A stretch of DNA of 22,747 nucleotides. Source: a virus. This document shows, piece by piece, positions 1-14,981 of this stretch (the first letter of the stretch is position 1; the number at the start of each line of letters is the position of its first letter). A program made the translations under genes and the position numbers. The stretch is taken from IMG/VR virus record IMGVR_UViG_3300047355_000145, positions 1 through 22,747 of that record; one strand, written 5' to 3'. The notes below the pieces were generated by a model that was not told the DNA's origin, did no database searches, and saw nothing but the letters and a program-made list of their open reading frames with translations.

Positions 1-517
1 AGGATAGTTTCTTTATCTCATCTCCACCCATCATAAGATACAATACTTCTTGGTCACCTTGGACAGGGTTTGCGAGACACTCGTTTGCCCAATCCTTTAG
101 TATACGAGGTGTTCCTTCTATCAAAACAACACCACTATTATACCATTTACCAAGTTCATTTCTTCGTGCCGTCCAAGGTCTATCTTCTACCATCCCTAGT
201 TTATGCGGTTCACTCAAATCAAATATATGGTCAACTCTTCCTGCAATCTCACAGTCTGTATCTAACCAACATACTTTCTTTACATCAGGTAGAGAAGATG
301 CGGCAAGCATAGCACGAGGTTTCTTGAACCAACCCTTCTCTCCAGATTGTATAGGTATCACAGTAAACATTGAGATATGACTTAACATCTCTTCACTCAT
401 ACCAAAGTCAGCAATCACTAGGTCTCCGCTAGGAACAAACCTATTAAACTTATTTATAAACCAAGGGAGTTGCCACTCAGTTTTTTTATCACATCCTGTT
501 AGAAATACCTCACGCAT
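1..517 (-). CDS. GT8-like glycosyltransferase, C-terminus cut by window edge
   Basis: A reading frame runs from an ATG at 517-515 to the left edge (172 codons visible, no stop), so the C-terminus is missing. It reads as a nucleotide-sugar glycosyltransferase of the GT8/GT-A type. A metal-binding DxD sits in WLDTDCEI (residues 84-91), a GT8-like WYNSGVVLI stretch is at 125-133 and GDQEVLY at 154-160. Such enzymes move a sugar from a nucleotide donor to an acceptor in the cytoplasm; donor and acceptor cannot be read here. The start overlaps the stop of the upstream gene by 8 nt, so it belongs to the overlapping operon that begins near 4113. The fold call rests on motifs only; another GT-A family is possible. 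Confidence 0.72.
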   Translation of the reverse strand, partial: MREVFLTGCDKKTEWQLPWFINKFNRFVPSGDLVIADFGMSEEMLSHISMFTVIPIQSGEKGWFKKPRAMLAASSLPDVKKVCWLDTDCEIAGRVDHIFDLSEPHKLGMVEDRPWTARRNELGKWYNSGVVLIEGTPRILKDWANECLANPVQGDQEVLYLMMGGDEIKKLS

Positions 518-1163
518 CGATAATCTCATATTCATCTCTGAAGTTATGTTTAGCAGTACAACCGCGTTCTACTTGTATTGTAGTGAAACTATCTCTTGCA
601 TCTGCAACGAAGGGATAGTACTCTTGTAACCAAGGAAATGTCGCAAGGTTCATATAGATATCAGTAGGTCTAGCATGAAGAGGTGCATTCTGTACAAGAA
701 GTTCTGCTCCAGCGGGAGTGACCATATATGCGTGTGCTCCACCAAAGTATCTCTTTGTGGTCAGGGGATTGACACCCAGTACAGATGGAGTATTATAACT
801 ACCATATGAGGGTTGACCTATATTCATTACATACGCAAACTTCGCGTTGACAGGAATAGGTGAATGTACGAATGCGTCGTGTTCAAATATAACAAAGTTC
901 TCATTACCCTTTGCGCACTTCTCCCAGAGAGAATGATGTGAAAGGAATGCCGCAATACAATTTAGATTTCGTGAGTAGACCTCATCAAATGCCTTTGGGT
1001 CAATACCTTTATCGGTAAGTAGTTTTACAGGGTCATCCTTTGGAGTAATCGCAGGAAACATTTCTACTTCTGTTCCTCTCAGTTGAGCAGACCCTACGCA
1101 TCTCTTTGCGACCTCCACCGATTTGTCATTATCCATTATTGTTATTACATATGCTTTTGTCAT
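510..1163 (-). CDS. GT25-like glycosyltransferase (copy 2)
   Basis: 217 residues. The start at 1163 is chosen because it forms an ATGA overlap with the stop of the upstream gene; a longer in-frame version adds 22 residues that merely read through that gene. The order of motifs matches family 25 (LPS-type) glycosyltransferases: an N-terminal AYVITIMDND strand (4-13), LSHHSLW (74-80), the acidic VIFEHDAFV (91-99) where the family usually has EDD, and GGAHAYMVTPAGAELL (141-156). The family transfers hexoses to LPS cores or protein hydroxylysine. The protein is clearly paralogous to the adjacent upstream gene. The His in the acidic triad could mean altered metal or substrate use. Function beyond sugar transfer is inference. 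Confidence 0.68.
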   Translation of the reverse strand: MTKAYVITIMDNDKSVEVAKRCVGSAQLRGTEVEMFPAITPKDDPVKLLTDKGIDPKAFDEVYSRNLNCIAAFLSHHSLWEKCAKGNENFVIFEHDAFVHSPIPVNAKFAYVMNIGQPSYGSYNTPSVLGVNPLTTKRYFGGAHAYMVTPAGAELLVQNAPLHARPTDIYMNLATFPWLQEYYPFVADARDSFTTIQVERGCTAKHNFRDEYEIIDA

Positions 1164-1876
1164 GATGATGTTGTTGACTTCAATCCTCTTTGTATCGTTG
1201 TATAGTATGGATACACCACTTGCATCCAAGGGAAAAATTGTTTACACATGACCGCATCATTTGGCCAAAGTCCAACCTCTCTTACTTTATCTAGTAGTTT
1301 CTTAGCACCCTTTGGTGTGATGAGATATGCGGAGTTTCCTGCGAGACCCTGTGGAACTTCTGCGTCATCTACACTTGGTACAGGTTGTAATCCCATCTTA
1401 GAACTTGCTATATTATGGAATACATCACTTCGTCTTGTTGCCCCACGAGGGTCATTCAATCCAAGTATCCCTCCCTTGAAGTCTTCTTTCAAAGGTTCGA
1501 AGTCAAACTTCCGAGTAAAGATTGCGTCGTGTTCAAGTATGATAATCGGTTTCTTACCTGTAGCACACTTATGCCATAGTCTCATATGAGAGACAGCACA
1601 GGCAACACGATTATTATTATTTGCGGTAGGGTAATGTCTCAGGTATAATCCCGATAAAATATCAAGACCATCTTCTTCTTTTGTGACAGGGTAAGTCCAT
1701 TCACAGTTACCCATATCAATCTCTTCAAGATGTCTCTTTACTTGACGTGGAACAGTTGCTACAAATACGGAAGGGTCTATCTCACTTTTCGTATTACGGA
1801 TTGAACCGATACATTTATGAGTTGCCTCAACACTTTCCTGATTATTATCAAGTGTTATAATATAACCTTTGATCAT
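1160..1876 (-). CDS. GT25-like glycosyltransferase (copy 1)
   Basis: 238 residues. It has the same architecture as its downstream neighbour: KGYIITLDNN (3-12), VSHMRLWHKC (95-104), IIILEHDAIF (111-120), then GNSAYLITPKGAKKLL near the C-terminal third. It reads as a GT25-type nucleotide-sugar transferase with EHD in place of the usual EDD. The segments around residues 50-90 and 135-165 are longer than in the paralogue, so the copies have diverged and may use different donors or acceptors. The start overlaps the upstream stop by one base (TAATG) and the stop overlaps the next start by four (ATGA), which suggests translational coupling. Donor and acceptor are unknown. Confidence 0.68.
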   Translation of the reverse strand: MIKGYIITLDNNQESVEATHKCIGSIRNTKSEIDPSVFVATVPRQVKRHLEEIDMGNCEWTYPVTKEEDGLDILSGLYLRHYPTANNNNRVACAVSHMRLWHKCATGKKPIIILEHDAIFTRKFDFEPLKEDFKGGILGLNDPRGATRRSDVFHNIASSKMGLQPVPSVDDAEVPQGLAGNSAYLITPKGAKKLLDKVREVGLWPNDAVMCKQFFPWMQVVYPYYTTIQRGLKSTTSS

Positions 1877-2454
1877 TATTTCATTTTCTTGATTACAGTA
1901 TATCCAACATTTCTAGTTTCACGTTCGAAAATCTCCCATTGATTTAATTCTTTACAGAATTTTTCAATCACATGATAGAGTGCTTCGTTAGGTTGTCTTG
2001 CAAGTTGTGAGGTGTCATGAAATACTATGTAGTCACTTACATACTCTTGATGAAATCTTAATTCTTGTGTCAAATAGTCTGGTGTATGTAAGGAATCTAT
2101 TAACAAAACTTGAGTAGGACTTCTAGATTGAGAATCTATACTGCTACATTCTTTTACGACCAACTCAATATTATTATCACTACAATACTTCTGAAATAGG
2201 TCTTTGCTCCAGTTATATTTTTCCAAAGTAATATCAATTAGTTCAACCTTTTTAGGGTTGCACAATATACCGCTTGCCGCAGAAGCACCTTGATGTAATC
2301 CTAATTCTTTATATGTATCACACTCTTGTAAACATCGTTTAACTGCATCGTGATGAGCACAGTAATGTTCCCCATGATATTTTTCTTGTTGACTTCGAAT
2401 TGACTCATAAAATTCTTCTAGGGTTTTACAATGCGCTGTATCTGCTGTTAACAT
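1876..2454 (-). CDS. Class I SAM-dependent methyltransferase-like protein
   Basis: 192 residues. The pattern fits a small class I methyltransferase of the Methyltransf_24 or cephalosporin-hydroxylase type: a motif I-like ELGLHQGASA loop (50-59) after a helix, an acidic strand end VELIDI with D74 placed to bind the SAM ribose, VLLIDSLHTPDYL (116-128), and YIVFHDT (142-148) where these families carry a metal-binding or catalytic acidic stretch. Motif I is not a textbook GxGxG, so loss of activity or a different cofactor use cannot be excluded. Lying between sulfotransferase and glycosyltransferase genes, it most plausibly O-methylates a sugar. The start overlaps the sulfotransferase stop by 7 nt. 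Confidence 0.58.
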   Translation of the reverse strand: MLTADTAHCKTLEEFYESIRSQQEKYHGEHYCAHHDAVKRCLQECDTYKELGLHQGASAASGILCNPKKVELIDITLEKYNWSKDLFQKYCSDNNIELVVKECSSIDSQSRSPTQVLLIDSLHTPDYLTQELRFHQEYVSDYIVFHDTSQLARQPNEALYHVIEKFCKELNQWEIFERETRNVGYTVIKKMK

Positions 2455-3161
2455 AATTTTCTCCAGTAGTTCTTTGTTGCTGAGGTATCAAAATCGAACC
2501 CCCAATAATCTATATCCTTTTTATACCAATCTGCTATAATCTGTATTGTCTCTTTATTGTATATATCCTTATAAGATGTACCATATCCTGTTTTACCATT
2601 ATCACCTGCTACACGAGTCACATTTCTTGGATTAGGATTTTGTAACAATCCGAGATACAATTTTGTATCTTCGTTGTAGTGTTCGAACCTTAGTATGTCG
2701 CACTTTACTTCCTCGCCTTTCTCATCACTTACATGGTCAAAGGCAGGATACCAACCTCTTACTGCGCGATGCCACATGAACTCATCGTTACCCCACTTAT
2801 GTCTTTCTTCTAGGAATGCTTCAAAGGATGATACATCAGCATAGTTTGGGGGTTGAGTTCCTTCGTGAAACATTATCTTCTTTGCAAAAAGATATCTTGA
2901 TACAACTCTGTCCCAAGGATTTCTTATGATAGCAAATGCTTTATATTCTTCTCGTAAATCCTTTCTCCAATCTCTCCAACGAGCATGTTCATATCCTTGG
3001 TGATCATTAGTACTATGCATCTTTCCTTCAAGTCTTTTAGTATAATCCATACTAATATGATTGCCGTGAGAACAAAACATTACTCTGTTTCGTATTCCGT
3101 CAATCTTACGGATTGTCATTCCGCCATTTTTGGGTATATGTATAAACAGTTTGAATTTCAT
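2448..3161 (-). CDS. Sulfotransferase (PAPS-dependent, carbohydrate type)
   Basis: 237 residues. Two hallmark PAPS-binding motifs are visible: the 5'-phosphosulfate loop in LFIHIPKNGGMTI (5-17) and the 3'-phosphate motif in FAIIRNPWDRVVSRY (76-90). This IPKxGG...RNPWDRxVS pattern is typical of Sulfotransfer_2-type carbohydrate sulfotransferases, which move sulfate from PAPS to a hydroxyl on a glycan. The length is normal for bacterial members. It lies between a glycosyltransferase (ATGA overlap) and a methyltransferase, so a phage-directed sulfated sugar is the simplest reading. PAPS would have to come from the host. I am confident of the family, not of the acceptor. Confidence 0.82.
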   Translation of the reverse strand: MKFKLFIHIPKNGGMTIRKIDGIRNRVMFCSHGNHISMDYTKRLEGKMHSTNDHQGYEHARWRDWRKDLREEYKAFAIIRNPWDRVVSRYLFAKKIMFHEGTQPPNYADVSSFEAFLEERHKWGNDEFMWHRAVRGWYPAFDHVSDEKGEEVKCDILRFEHYNEDTKLYLGLLQNPNPRNVTRVAGDNGKTGYGTSYKDIYNKETIQIIADWYKKDIDYWGFDFDTSATKNYWRKLC

Positions 3162-3952
3162 ATCGTTTTCATTAACTCCTCTATATTTTCTCCACTAGAG
3201 GGTAGTTTGTCTTTCAAGAAGAAATGAACAAAGTGACACTCTTTTATATTATTGACTGCCGTATAGAGACCATTCCATTTACCATCCATATGTTTAGTAG
3301 GTATCTTATATCTCTTCAGAAAATAGTTCAGGAGTGTCTGGTCTGTACTCCACTTCCAACCACCTTTACCATCAACAAAGTCTTTGAACTCTGCTCTCAT
3401 AAGAAAGTCATTTGCGTTCTGTCCTTTGAGATAAGGTTTGAAGAGTTGACAATTAATAAGTATCATACCCATATTGAAGAACTCATATCCTCTCTGTTTA
3501 GGTCGGAAGTCACATAGTCTGCCATGCAAACTTGCATACTGCATATGAGAATAGTTTTGTATCTTCCTTATATATGCCTCATTAATATCCATCTCACGTT
3601 CACTTACCGAACCCCATGCATTGTCATGTCCAAACTCAGTAAATATATTAGGTGAGTCAGGTCTGATATAAATGTCAGCATCTATAATACCTATCTGGTC
3701 ATAGTTATCAATGAGGTCAAAGGCATTCTCTTTCTCATAGATAGGTAGATATCCTCCATACTTTTCATAGGATTCTTTACTACGATAGTCCGTAAATACA
3801 TCTGGTTTAATTCGTAACTTAGGTTGTGTTAATACAATATGTTCTATATCATATTTCTTACAATAATCTGCTACGGATTGTATACAGTGTTCGTATAACT
3901 TACTTGGTTTACCTACCGATACCTGATAGATTAATCTTCTAATTTTTTTCAT
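3158..3952 (-). CDS. GT-A type glycosyltransferase with DAD motif
   Basis: 264 residues. An N-terminal strand (RRLIYQVSVG) is followed by QIGIIDADIYIRPD (86-99), whose DAD (91-93) serves as the metal-binding DxD, and by FFNMGMILINCQLFKPYL, resembling the xFNxGxxLxN helix of GT8-like enzymes. A WSTDQTLLNYF stretch corresponds to the late DQ motif of this group. It likely transfers a sugar from a nucleotide donor. The start lies in an ATGA overlap with the stop of the zinc-ribbon gene, and the stop overlaps the sulfotransferase start. It shares only general fold features with the partial gene at the left edge, so the two probably catalyse different steps. Confidence 0.72.
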   Translation of the reverse strand: MKKIRRLIYQVSVGKPSKLYEHCIQSVADYCKKYDIEHIVLTQPKLRIKPDVFTDYRSKESYEKYGGYLPIYEKENAFDLIDNYDQIGIIDADIYIRPDSPNIFTEFGHDNAWGSVSEREMDINEAYIRKIQNYSHMQYASLHGRLCDFRPKQRGYEFFNMGMILINCQLFKPYLKGQNANDFLMRAEFKDFVDGKGGWKWSTDQTLLNYFLKRYKIPTKHMDGKWNGLYTAVNNIKECHFVHFFLKDKLPSSGENIEELMKTI

Positions 3953-4113
3953 GTTCTATCTTTCCATTTATCATAAACAAATGATTTATGTTGTTCTCCA
4001 CAGTGTGGACAATACAGTTTCTTAGGTTTCCATTCATCCATTGTAGCAATACTAAACCATCCTTTACAAGATGAGCATACGAAATGCCATATATTTTCTT
4101 TACTAGTTCTCAT
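3949..4113 (-). CDS. Small zinc-ribbon protein, first gene of the sugar operon
   Basis: 54 residues from ATG 4113 to TGA 3949. Two cysteine pairs, CSSC (13-16) and CPHC (35-38), 18 residues apart, form a rubredoxin-like zinc knuckle; FVCSSCKGWF and LYCPHCGEQH are typical surroundings. A purine-rich GGGAAGG lies about 9 nt before the start. It is the first gene after the promoter at 4143-4171 and its stop overlaps the next start (ATGA). The role is unknown; such proteins often bind nucleic acid or act as partner subunits. The cysteine spacing and tight gene packing make it a likely real gene despite its size. Confidence 0.72.
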   Translation of the reverse strand: MRTSKENIWHFVCSSCKGWFSIATMDEWKPKKLYCPHCGEQHKSFVYDKWKDRT

Positions 4114-4142
4114 ATATACTACCTTCCCTAAAGAGTACTTTA

Positions 4143-4171
4143 AGTATACTATAAAACGTTTAAATAGTCAA
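4143..4171 (-). promoter_or_regulatory. Sigma70-type promoter of the sugar/sulfate operon
   Basis: On the minus strand, TTGACT (4171-4166) and TATACT (4148-4143) are separated by exactly 17 nt. The site lies in the only sizeable gap between 4180 and 4113 and faces the seven overlapping genes to the left. A bacterial-type promoter implies transcription by host RNA polymerase with its housekeeping sigma factor, so early expression is likely (inference). Confidence 0.75.
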
Positions 4172-13320: not shown

Positions 13321-13620
13321 TTATCTTCTTCTTTTTTTCTCTTTATCTAATAAAGCAGCAATCTTCATAAGTGTTTCTTTATCTTTGTCAGAGATATTAT
13401 CTAGTTGTTTCTGTTTGTTAATTTTTTCAAGAGACTTTGCCCATTCAGCATCAGATTCCTCAATAGAACTTTCGTACTTCTTTAAGACCTCTTTCCTTTT
13501 CTTTTTTTCTTTATCCATATGTACGGGTACAGTCTCGGAGTCATCTCCTGCTCCAGCAACTGCACCTGTCGTCATATTTTCTTTTACTTTTGATTCTACG
13601 AATTGTTTAAAATTTTTCAT
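13321..13620 (-). CDS. Lysine-rich small protein with capsid-targeting-like leader
   Basis: 99 residues, highly charged, Lys-rich and helical. The N-terminus MKNFKQFVESKVKEN resembles the T4 capsid-targeting sequence (MKTYQEFIAEA in internal protein III), followed by a Gly/Ala-rich GAVAGAGDD linker that could be cut by a prohead protease. The rest is a long charged helix (KEKKKRKEVLKKYE, EWAKSLEKINKQKQL) ending in KKRRR, suited to DNA binding inside the head. All of this is inference from pattern; no family is recognised. The start overlaps the stop of the rimK-like gene (TAATG). Confidence 0.58.
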   Translation of the reverse strand: MKNFKQFVESKVKENMTTGAVAGAGDDSETVPVHMDKEKKKRKEVLKKYESSIEESDAEWAKSLEKINKQKQLDNISDKDKETLMKIAALLDKEKKRRR

Positions 13621-14981
13621 TAGTATTCTCTTATATTTGTTAACATAAATTTACGAGACGGGTTTATCATTAGGTTCGCTCTCGCCATAAAGTCTCTGTT
13701 TGCTAGAAAAGGAATTGAGTTTCTATTATCTAACGATACTTCCATTTCATACTTAGTGTTTAGAAAGTCTAGTTCTACCATAACAACAGGTCGTTCTTCT
13801 TTGGGTTTTAACATTTTAATTACTCTTACTTGAGGTTTCTTATACTTAACCCCTGAAGTTGTCCAAGTAACTATTCCGTCTTTAACTTCAATATCCTCCG
13901 CATGTAACGCGCATGCAGTAGCATTATTTCCTGTATCCATTTTTACAACGAGTGGTTGCCCTTCAACGTCTATCGCCTCTAACACGCCACACTCGGTTGC
14001 ACTTTTTCTCCATACTCCCTTATCGAACATACTATCAAGAACAATCTTATTTACATCCCCCTTGATAACTTTATTTATACCTGTTGTACCCGCTGAATGA
14101 TTGACCTCTATCATATAGGGTACATCCTTCTCTCTGTTTTTTGCGGGCATAAAGTCAACCCCAACCCATTGACCATTCACTGCTTTCGCAGCAAGAAGAA
14201 CATTTTCTTCTTCTAACTTAGTGAGTTTGATTTCTTCTGGTTCAGAACCTTGAGATACATTACTTCGGAAGTCATCTAATATCTTAGGTCGTTTCATCGC
14301 GCCAATAATTTGTTTATCAACCACGATACATCTAACGTCGTAATCAACCTCAATATATTCTTGTATGAGTATATCTGCATAGGGGTCTACCTTATAGACT
14401 AACTGAACTGTTGCCTGTAATGACCTAGCGGATTCAACCAAGAGAACACCGACACCTTTACTTCCTTGTAATGTTTTCAAAACCATAGGAAATTTATTGT
14501 CTAGTGCCTTCGTTGCGAACTGAACACTTTCTTTTTCTGCGTTAGGTATCAATACAGACTTAGGTTGATTAAGACCAACCTCTTGTAGTTGTAGGTAACA
14601 TCTAAATTTATCGTTACATATTTCTATGGTTTGACGTGAGTTATTTACAGGAATTTTATATCTCTCTATCTGAGATATCAAGTCTAAGTGTGAGTCCTTA
14701 CAACCAACGTCGCCTCTAACAAGAACAACAGTATTATCATCAAGTTCAAACCCTGCCTCATCCCCTTCGTTATGAAGTTTAACTATACCAGATTTAGCAT
14801 CACGTGTAATATACGCACCTTCAATGCGACAATCGTATGCTTCCAATGACATTTTCTTTGCCATAGTAATGAGTTTATGACTAGTTGAGTTAGGGTCTTT
14901 TTCCTCAGGTCTTTCTGCGAGAACTACAAGACGGTATGTACTTACGGTCTTATCTTTATTCTCTCGAATAATAAGTCTCAC
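13620..14981 (-). CDS. RimK-type ATP-grasp ligase fused to RimB-like aspartic peptidase
   Basis: 453 residues. Residues about 15-320 are a RimK-type ATP-grasp enzyme: VLKTLQGSKGVGVLL (167-181), ILIQEYIEVDYDVRCIVV (204-221), DDFRSNVSQG (236-245) and YMIEVNHSAGTTGI (289-302). RimK proteins add glutamate or similar amino acids to carboxyl ends. Residues about 331-447 match the 'ATP-dependent zinc protease'/RimB fold of retropepsin-like peptidases: VKMDTGNNATACALHAEDIE (346-365), RPVVMVEL (397-404), LDNRNSIPFLANRDFM (417-432) and INPSRKFML. Ligase and putative tail-removing peptidase are thus one chain. The start is GTG at 14981, with AGGTGAG 8 nt upstream and a 4-nt overlap (GTGA) with the previous gene. 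The target, perhaps a virion or host ribosomal protein, is unknown. Confidence 0.83.
   Translation of the reverse strand: MRLIIRENKDKTVSTYRLVVLAERPEEKDPNSTSHKLITMAKKMSLEAYDCRIEGAYITRDAKSGIVKLHNEGDEAGFELDDNTVVLVRGDVGCKDSHLDLISQIERYKIPVNNSRQTIEICNDKFRCYLQLQEVGLNQPKSVLIPNAEKESVQFATKALDNKFPMVLKTLQGSKGVGVLLVESARSLQATVQLVYKVDPYADILIQEYIEVDYDVRCIVVDKQIIGAMKRPKILDDFRSNVSQGSEPEEIKLTKLEEENVLLAAKAVNGQWVGVDFMPAKNREKDVPYMIEVNHSAGTTGINKVIKGDVNKIVLDSMFDKGVWRKSATECGVLEAIDVEGQPLVVKMDTGNNATACALHAEDIEVKDGIVTWTTSGVKYKKPQVRVIKMLKPKEERPVVMVELDFLNTKYEMEVSLDNRNSIPFLANRDFMARANLMINPSRKFMLTNIREY

What the first reader, a model, noticed from the sequence alone, without database searches (positions are those of the whole stretch)
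1..4171. Phage operon for a sulfated, methylated glycan
Seven overlapping genes share one sigma70-type promoter: a zinc ribbon, a DAD glycosyltransferase, a PAPS sulfotransferase, a SAM methyltransferase, two GT25-like proteins and a GT8-like protein. Motifs and overlaps are seen in the sequence. A joint pathway that decorates a host surface glycan, a virion protein or modified DNA is inference. The combination of three kinds of modification in one coupled phage operon is unusual.
Basis: partly seen in the sequence, partly recalled or inferred. Interest (0 to 1): 0.75.

Follow-up and report, generated by a model that had tools for sequence, protein, structure and literature searches.

The report
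Marine phage sugar-decorating gene cassette
A T4-like ocean phage carries a tightly packed set of genes that very probably builds a short sugar chain and then adds sulfate and methyl groups to it; the same set, with swappable decorating genes, recurs in many uncultured marine phages, but what the sugar is attached to is not known.

Summary
Seven overlapping minus-strand genes (zinc ribbon, GT-A glycosyltransferase "DAD", Sulfotransfer_2 sulfotransferase ST, O-methyltransferase-fold MT, two GT25 proteins, one GT8/glycogenin-like protein) follow one sigma70-type promoter (4171-4143). The promoter's hexamers are kept in three relatives while its spacer diverges.

The cassette is real and widespread. 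In IMG/VR contigs anchored on ST, DAD lies upstream in 47/49 and the GTs downstream in 36/37, never on the opposite strand. Anchored on MT, 72/78 have cassette genes nearby. Catalytic motifs are invariant or nearly so, and dN/dS is 0.07-0.16 for the four genes testable. No comparable cassette appears in 50,697 phage records; cultured HTVC008M has only a distant GT8L homologue inside another sugar-gene cluster.

The region between DAD and the GT25 pair is an exchange slot: among four closest relatives ST and MT are kept, swapped or accompanied by other tailoring genes. Sulfation and methylation are therefore interchangeable decorations on a shared GT core.

Best reading: soluble, early-expressed enzymes that assemble and decorate a glycan, most likely on the host surface (superinfection/adsorption control). 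Virion glycosylation is the main rival; DNA glycosylation is disfavoured. Acceptor and sugars remain untested.

The parts
4143..4171 (-). sigma70-type promoter TTGACT-N17-TATACT upstream of the cassette
   Evidence: hexamers conserved in L002, L004, L070; same pattern before nrdA, HAD and another gene, 4 found vs 0.25 expected
3949..4113 (-). 54-aa zinc ribbon (CSSC...CPHC); role unknown; found only in the closest relatives
3158..3952 (-). DAD: GT-A fold glycosyltransferase (264 aa) with invariant D91xD93, N160, D204Q205, H243
   Evidence: Pfam GT8 below cut-off
2448..3161 (-). ST: PAPS-type sulfotransferase, Sulfotransfer_2, 5'-PSB HIPKNGG and 3'-PB RNPW....SR conserved
   Evidence: dN/dS 0.07-0.14
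1876..2454 (-). MT: SAM-dependent O-methyltransferase-fold protein (192 aa), invariant E50xG52..QG, D120, H123, HDT146-148
   Evidence: 425 relatives in viral contigs
1160..1876 (-). GT25b: glycosyltransferase family 25 protein, EHD motif
   Evidence: Pfam 49.8 bits vs cut-off 24; dN/dS 0.10-0.16
510..1169 (-). GT25a: glycosyltransferase family 25 protein, EHDA motif
   Evidence: Pfam 43.2 bits vs cut-off 24; dN/dS 0.08-0.13
2..535 (-). GT8L: GT8/glycogenin-like glycosyltransferase, cut by the window end (221 aa in L004), invariant D92xD94, NSG, GDQ
   Evidence: distant homologue in Pelagibacter phage HTVC008M

Best explanation
The region is a modular glycan-tailoring cassette of T4-like marine myophages. 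A conserved core of soluble GT-A glycosyltransferases (DAD, GT25b, GT25a, GT8L) adds a few sugars, drawn from host nucleotide sugars, to an acceptor on the cytoplasmic side of the infected cell. Tailoring enzymes encoded in an exchange slot between DAD and the GT25 pair then decorate it: here O-sulfation from host PAPS and O-methylation from SAM. Transcription starts early or in the middle phase from a sigma70-type promoter. The most likely acceptor is a host envelope glycan such as LPS core or O-chain, so that the surface is altered during infection and other phages, or the phage's own progeny, adsorb less well. Shown: gene content, folds, motif conservation, purifying selection, synteny and modular exchange. 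Inferred: enzymatic activity, order of steps, early timing, acceptor and benefit.
For: Families, folds and motifs. Purifying selection on ST, DAD, GT25a and GT25b. Co-localisation from three anchors: ST (47/49 DAD upstream, 36/37 GTs downstream, none on the opposite strand), DAD (41/48 GTs downstream) and MT (72/78). Slot swapping and neighbouring tailoring families: several methyltransferase families, NodU carbamoyltransferase, HAD + sugar-nucleotidyltransferase fusion, GDP-mannose dehydratase, hexapeptide acyltransferase. No hydrophobic segment in any cassette enzyme. In near-complete relative G001 (149 kb) the cassette lies between endolysin/HAD and the gp32-like SSB, and sigma70 patterns are abundant in replication and early regions (33 vs about 1.5 expected) but rare in the structural module. 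Cultured HTVC008M has its GT8L homologue in a cluster with a second GT, methyltransferase, carbamoyltransferase and UDP-glucose dehydrogenase. GTs of pelagimyophages were read as O-chain modification against co-infection (PMC7029224).
Against: No direct evidence for the acceptor. No gene for a lipid carrier, flippase or polymerase is seen. The host is unknown. The MT family also occurs next to terminase and tail-sheath genes in a few contigs (L175, L176, L246). A late-type motif (CTAAATA) lies before g4569, so read-through at late times is possible.
Confidence: 0.5

Rival explanations
1. Virion glycosylation: the cassette builds a sulfated, methylated oligosaccharide on a capsid, tail or fibre protein, for stability, camouflage or adsorption, as chloroviruses do with their own GTs and methyltransferases.
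For: All enzymes are soluble, compatible with glycosylating a cytoplasmic virion protein. DAD matches the PBCV-1 capsid glycosyltransferase among other GT-A folds (2p6w and 2p73, E 2e-6 to 3e-6). A late-type motif lies upstream at g4569. A few MT homologues sit beside terminase/tail genes.
Against: The promoter class is that of early/middle genes. The cassette is far from structural genes in G001. Foldseek's best matches are not capsid GTs.
Confidence: 0.25
2. DNA hypermodification: the GTs, ST and MT decorate phage DNA bases.
For: Phage glycosylation/sulfation systems for bases have been proposed (Iyer et al. 2013, cited in PMC10829341; the original was not readable here).
Against: No thymidylate-synthase/hydroxymethylase family protein in 4 large relatives, no C5 methyltransferase in 8, TET/JBP in 1 of 8. 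In that one (G004) the TET sits next to its own HMC-glucosyltransferase-like gene (PHROG 842), far from the cassette. Pfam, NCBIfam and PHROG scans of cassette proteins gave no credible DNA-modification family.
Confidence: 0.06
3. Separate auxiliary genes that merely sit together in a hypervariable island, each with its own substrate.
For: ST and MT are gained and lost independently. Unrelated genes such as a TctA-type transporter can enter the same slot (L063).
Against: The same order, strand and tight overlaps recur across contigs with proteins down to about 40% identity, found from three different anchors. Most slot genes belong to sugar-tailoring or methyltransferase families.
Confidence: 0.15

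Closest known systems
Glycosyltransferase / LPS-gene clusters of pelagimyophages and cyanomyophages (PMC7029224; HTVC008M gp155-gp164)
   Same: T4-like marine phages; GT8-type GTs with methyltransferase, carbamoyltransferase and UDP-sugar enzymes; read as host surface modification against co-infection
   Different: The paper does not mention sulfotransferases or methyltransferases. Its main island lies between VrlC and gp14, whereas this cassette lies between endolysin/HAD and gp32. The core here is DAD-GT25b-GT25a-GT8L.
Sulfotransfer_2 carbohydrate sulfotransferases (PF03567; PHROG 3347 'Galactose-3-O-sulfotransferase')
   Same: PAPS-binding motifs and family score over cut-off
   Different: A small (237 aa) soluble phage form; only one distant relative in annotated phage records (25% identity)
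Sulfotransferases reported in other marine phages (PMC10580990, OM43 phages and cyanophage S-SRM01)
   Same: Phage-encoded sulfotransferase of unknown role
   Different: Those are reported as the Sulfotransfer_3 domain; the passages read mention no GT cassette
GT25 glycosyltransferases (LgtB/LpsA type, PF01755)
   Same: Family score over cut-off, conserved acidic motif
   Different: Two diverged copies in tandem (about 28% identical) in a phage

Membership tests
Sulfotransfer_2 (PF03567) | Score over Pfam gathering cut-off | tested here: met
   43.3 vs 22 bits
Sulfotransfer_2 (PF03567) | 5'-phosphosulfate and 3'-phosphate binding motifs kept across homologues | tested here: met
   H8IPKN, G14; R80NPW and S88 invariant or nearly so in 46 sequences
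Sulfotransfer_2 (PF03567) | Transfers sulfate from PAPS to a sugar hydroxyl | not testable with these tools
   needs enzyme assay
Glycosyltransferase family 25 (PF01755) | Score over gathering cut-off and conserved acidic motif | tested here: met
   43.2 and 49.8 vs 24 bits; E96-H-D98 and E115-H-D117
Glycosyltransferase family 8 (PF01501), for DAD and GT8L | Score over gathering cut-off | tested here: not met
   16.7 and 15.8 vs 24.3 bits; so described as GT8-like / GT-A fold, not as members
GT-A fold glycosyltransferases, for DAD | Fold and DxD metal motif | tested here: met
   pLDDT 92.5, Foldseek to UGGT/LgtC/GT6; D91xD93 and H243 invariant
SAM-dependent O-methyltransferase, for MT | Rossmann O-MT fold and conserved SAM-site residues | tested here: met
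   pLDDT 94.8, Foldseek to plant O-MTs and to sugar O-MT MeT1; E50/G52/D120/H146-D147 invariant
SAM-dependent O-methyltransferase, for MT | Score over a Pfam methyltransferase cut-off | tested here: not met
   best hits below cut-offs
Pelagimyophage host-recognition cluster | Location between VrlC and neck gene gp14 | tested here: not met
   in G001 the cassette is at 67-81 kb, VrlC-gp14 at 112-134 kb
T4-type DNA glucosylation system | dCMP hydroxymethylase (TS-family), or 5mC methyltransferase plus TET, in the same phage | tested here: not met
   none in relatives except one TET with its own GT; the window's own genome is only a 22.7-kb fragment

The most novel reading that the evidence does not exclude
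These phages make a phage-specific sulfated and methylated oligosaccharide, with a rapidly swappable set of decorations, and display it on their own virions or on the cell as a chemical identity tag. It would be a combinatorial glycan code for phage-phage competition or camouflage, analogous to bacterial serotype islands but virus-encoded.
Probability: 0.25. Interest if true: 0.8.

Novelty: new variant of a known kind. Interest (0 to 1): 0.52.

Why it matters
[quoted passage not shown] Here one sits inside a conserved, selected cassette with its probable partners, which turns the question into a testable pathway: does infection put a sulfated, methylated glycan on cells or virions? The swap slot offers a natural series of decoration variants on one GT core, spread over many marine T4-like phages and nearly absent from annotated phage records.

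Tried and rejected
Direct sequence search of PDB with ST gave nothing; the profile gave only marginal SULT hits and spurious serpins. The MT and DAD profiles found nothing credible in PDB by sequence, so folds were used instead. A single-sequence scan with MT found no relatives; the alignment scan found 425, so an early impression that MT is rare was wrong. DAD in bacterial genomes gave 8 MAG contigs. The informative ones carry the same cassette with phage genes and look like phage contigs binned into MAGs, and the short ones are undecided, so there is no clear cellular source. PAPS supply by the phage: an APS kinase search was negative in 7 of 8 relatives, with one weak P-loop hit in G008. 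NCBIfam gave nothing useful. No paper on phage C48C1 was found. The zinc ribbon could not be assigned. DNA modification was considered and disfavoured.

Full report
What the window is. It is a 22.7-kb IMG/VR virus record from a T4-like marine phage. It carries nrdA/nrdB, PhoH, an endolysin, a nucleotidase-like HAD gene and a cytidyltransferase, and it is colinear with a 149-kb relative, G001, that has a T4-type core. Among annotated phages the nearest nrdA is in phage C48C1 (76%), then Methylophilales phage Melnitz (65%). The host is unknown. The window's G+C is 35-41% by 2-kb block.

The seven overlapping minus-strand genes exist as stated, and the window end cuts the last one (221 aa in L004). 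The sulfotransferase and both GT25 proteins pass Pfam cut-offs; the other two GT assignments and the methyltransferase do not. AlphaFold models with 52 and 15 aligned homologues are confident, and they match GT-A glycosyltransferases (DAD) and class I O-methyltransferases (MT). The GT8L profile finds glycogenin.

The promoter. TTGACT-17-TATACT at 4171-4143 keeps both hexamers in L002, L004 and L070, while the spacer differs in L002 and L004. The strict pattern occurs four times on the window's minus strand against 0.25 expected, and 33 times in G001 against about 1.5, mostly in the replication and small-gene regions and rarely in the structural module. I infer early or middle expression. A late-type CTAAATA lies before g4569 upstream, so late read-through is not excluded.

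Active sites and selection. In 46 sulfotransferases the HIPKNGG and RNPW...SR motifs are invariant or nearly so. In 85 DAD proteins D91, D93, D204, Q205 and H243 are invariant. GT8L, both GT25s and MT keep their acidic and SAM-site residues. dN/dS is 0.07-0.16 for ST, DAD, GT25a and GT25b against the closest relatives; for MT and for more distant ST and DAD pairs synonymous sites are saturated, so no ratio could be computed.

Synteny, tested from three anchors. Anchored on ST: DAD upstream in 47 of 49 contigs with enough flank, GT25/GT8L downstream in 36 of 37, and no member on the other strand. Anchored on DAD: GTs downstream in 41 of 48, PhoH/endolysin/HAD upstream in 40. Anchored on MT (425 relatives; best 80 read): 72 of 78 have cassette genes nearby, 62 with GT25b and 62 with GT25a. 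Related contigs are not independent, but the range of identity (down to about 40%) is wide. The refuter of independent scattering is not met.

Modularity. The four closest relatives share 84-98% identical DAD, GT25 and GT8L proteins, yet the slot between DAD and GT25b differs: window ST-MT; L004 ST plus another methyltransferase family; L070 two methyltransferases and no ST; L002/L003 ST, that other methyltransferase, an HAD + nucleotidyltransferase pair and a further gene. Over the first two contig sets the slot holds ST only in 56, both in 6, MT only in 7 and neither in 24. Other slot or flank genes are several methyltransferase families, NodU carbamoyltransferase, radical SAM/SPASM, a glutamine amidotransferase, a cupin, GDP-mannose dehydratase and a hexapeptide acyltransferase. 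I read this as a fixed GT core with exchangeable decorations.

Acceptor. No cassette enzyme has a membrane segment. DNA as acceptor is disfavoured: no TS-family enzyme in 4 large relatives, no C5 methyltransferase in 8, one TET/JBP in 8, and that one sits beside its own glucosyltransferase-like gene away from the cassette. Host envelope glycan is preferred because of the promoter class, the LPS-type GT25 family, and the published reading of GTs in the related pelagimyophages (PMC7029224). Virion glycosylation remains a serious rival. None of this is direct evidence.

Novelty. In 50,697 annotated phage records ST has one distant match, GT25a one distant match, GT8L one homologue (HTVC008M), and DAD and MT none. 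Phage glycan-modification clusters and phage sulfotransferases are known separately. This conserved modular combination is, as far as my searches go, undescribed. I rate it a new variant of a known kind.

Noticed in passing
L008, L022, L099 and about 25-31 loci, between DAD and ST (e.g. L008:4364-8007): A conserved six-gene block: weak ferritin-like protein, class-I glutamine amidotransferase, cupin, two unknowns, methyltransferase; with the HAD + nucleotidyltransferase fusion after ST. From memory it faintly recalls the phosphoramidate capsule pathway of Campylobacter; untested.
   Followed up: partly
L173:9444-11578 (G004, about 129-132 kb): A TET/JBP dioxygenase gene directly followed by an HMC-glucosyltransferase-like gene (PHROG 842): a probable DNA hypermodification pair in a cassette-bearing phage.
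   Followed up: partly
L063:4493-5920: A full-length TctA tricarboxylate-transporter membrane protein gene inside the cassette slot of a phage contig.
   Followed up: no
L175:1785, L176:1061, L246:1: MT homologues (45-66% identical) lie next to terminase or tail-sheath genes instead of in the cassette.
   Followed up: no
L087:3321-4289 and 86 other loci; L080:717-1568 and 91 other loci: A radical SAM/SPASM protein and a 283-aa protein without any family match lie just upstream of DAD in most relatives but are absent from the window.
   Followed up: no
L004:6035-6670, L010:14210-14839 and about 60 loci: A conserved ~209-aa protein without Pfam, PHROG or NCBIfam match follows GT8L on the same strand; possibly another cassette member.
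   Followed up: partly
window 13620-14981: RimK-like ATP-grasp ligase gene (phrog_2599, S6 glutaminyl transferase) in the same phage.
   Followed up: no
L002 (G002:C1:32706-33498): DAD is split by a stop or frameshift in this contig, and GT8L is in two pieces: inactivation or assembly error.
   Followed up: no
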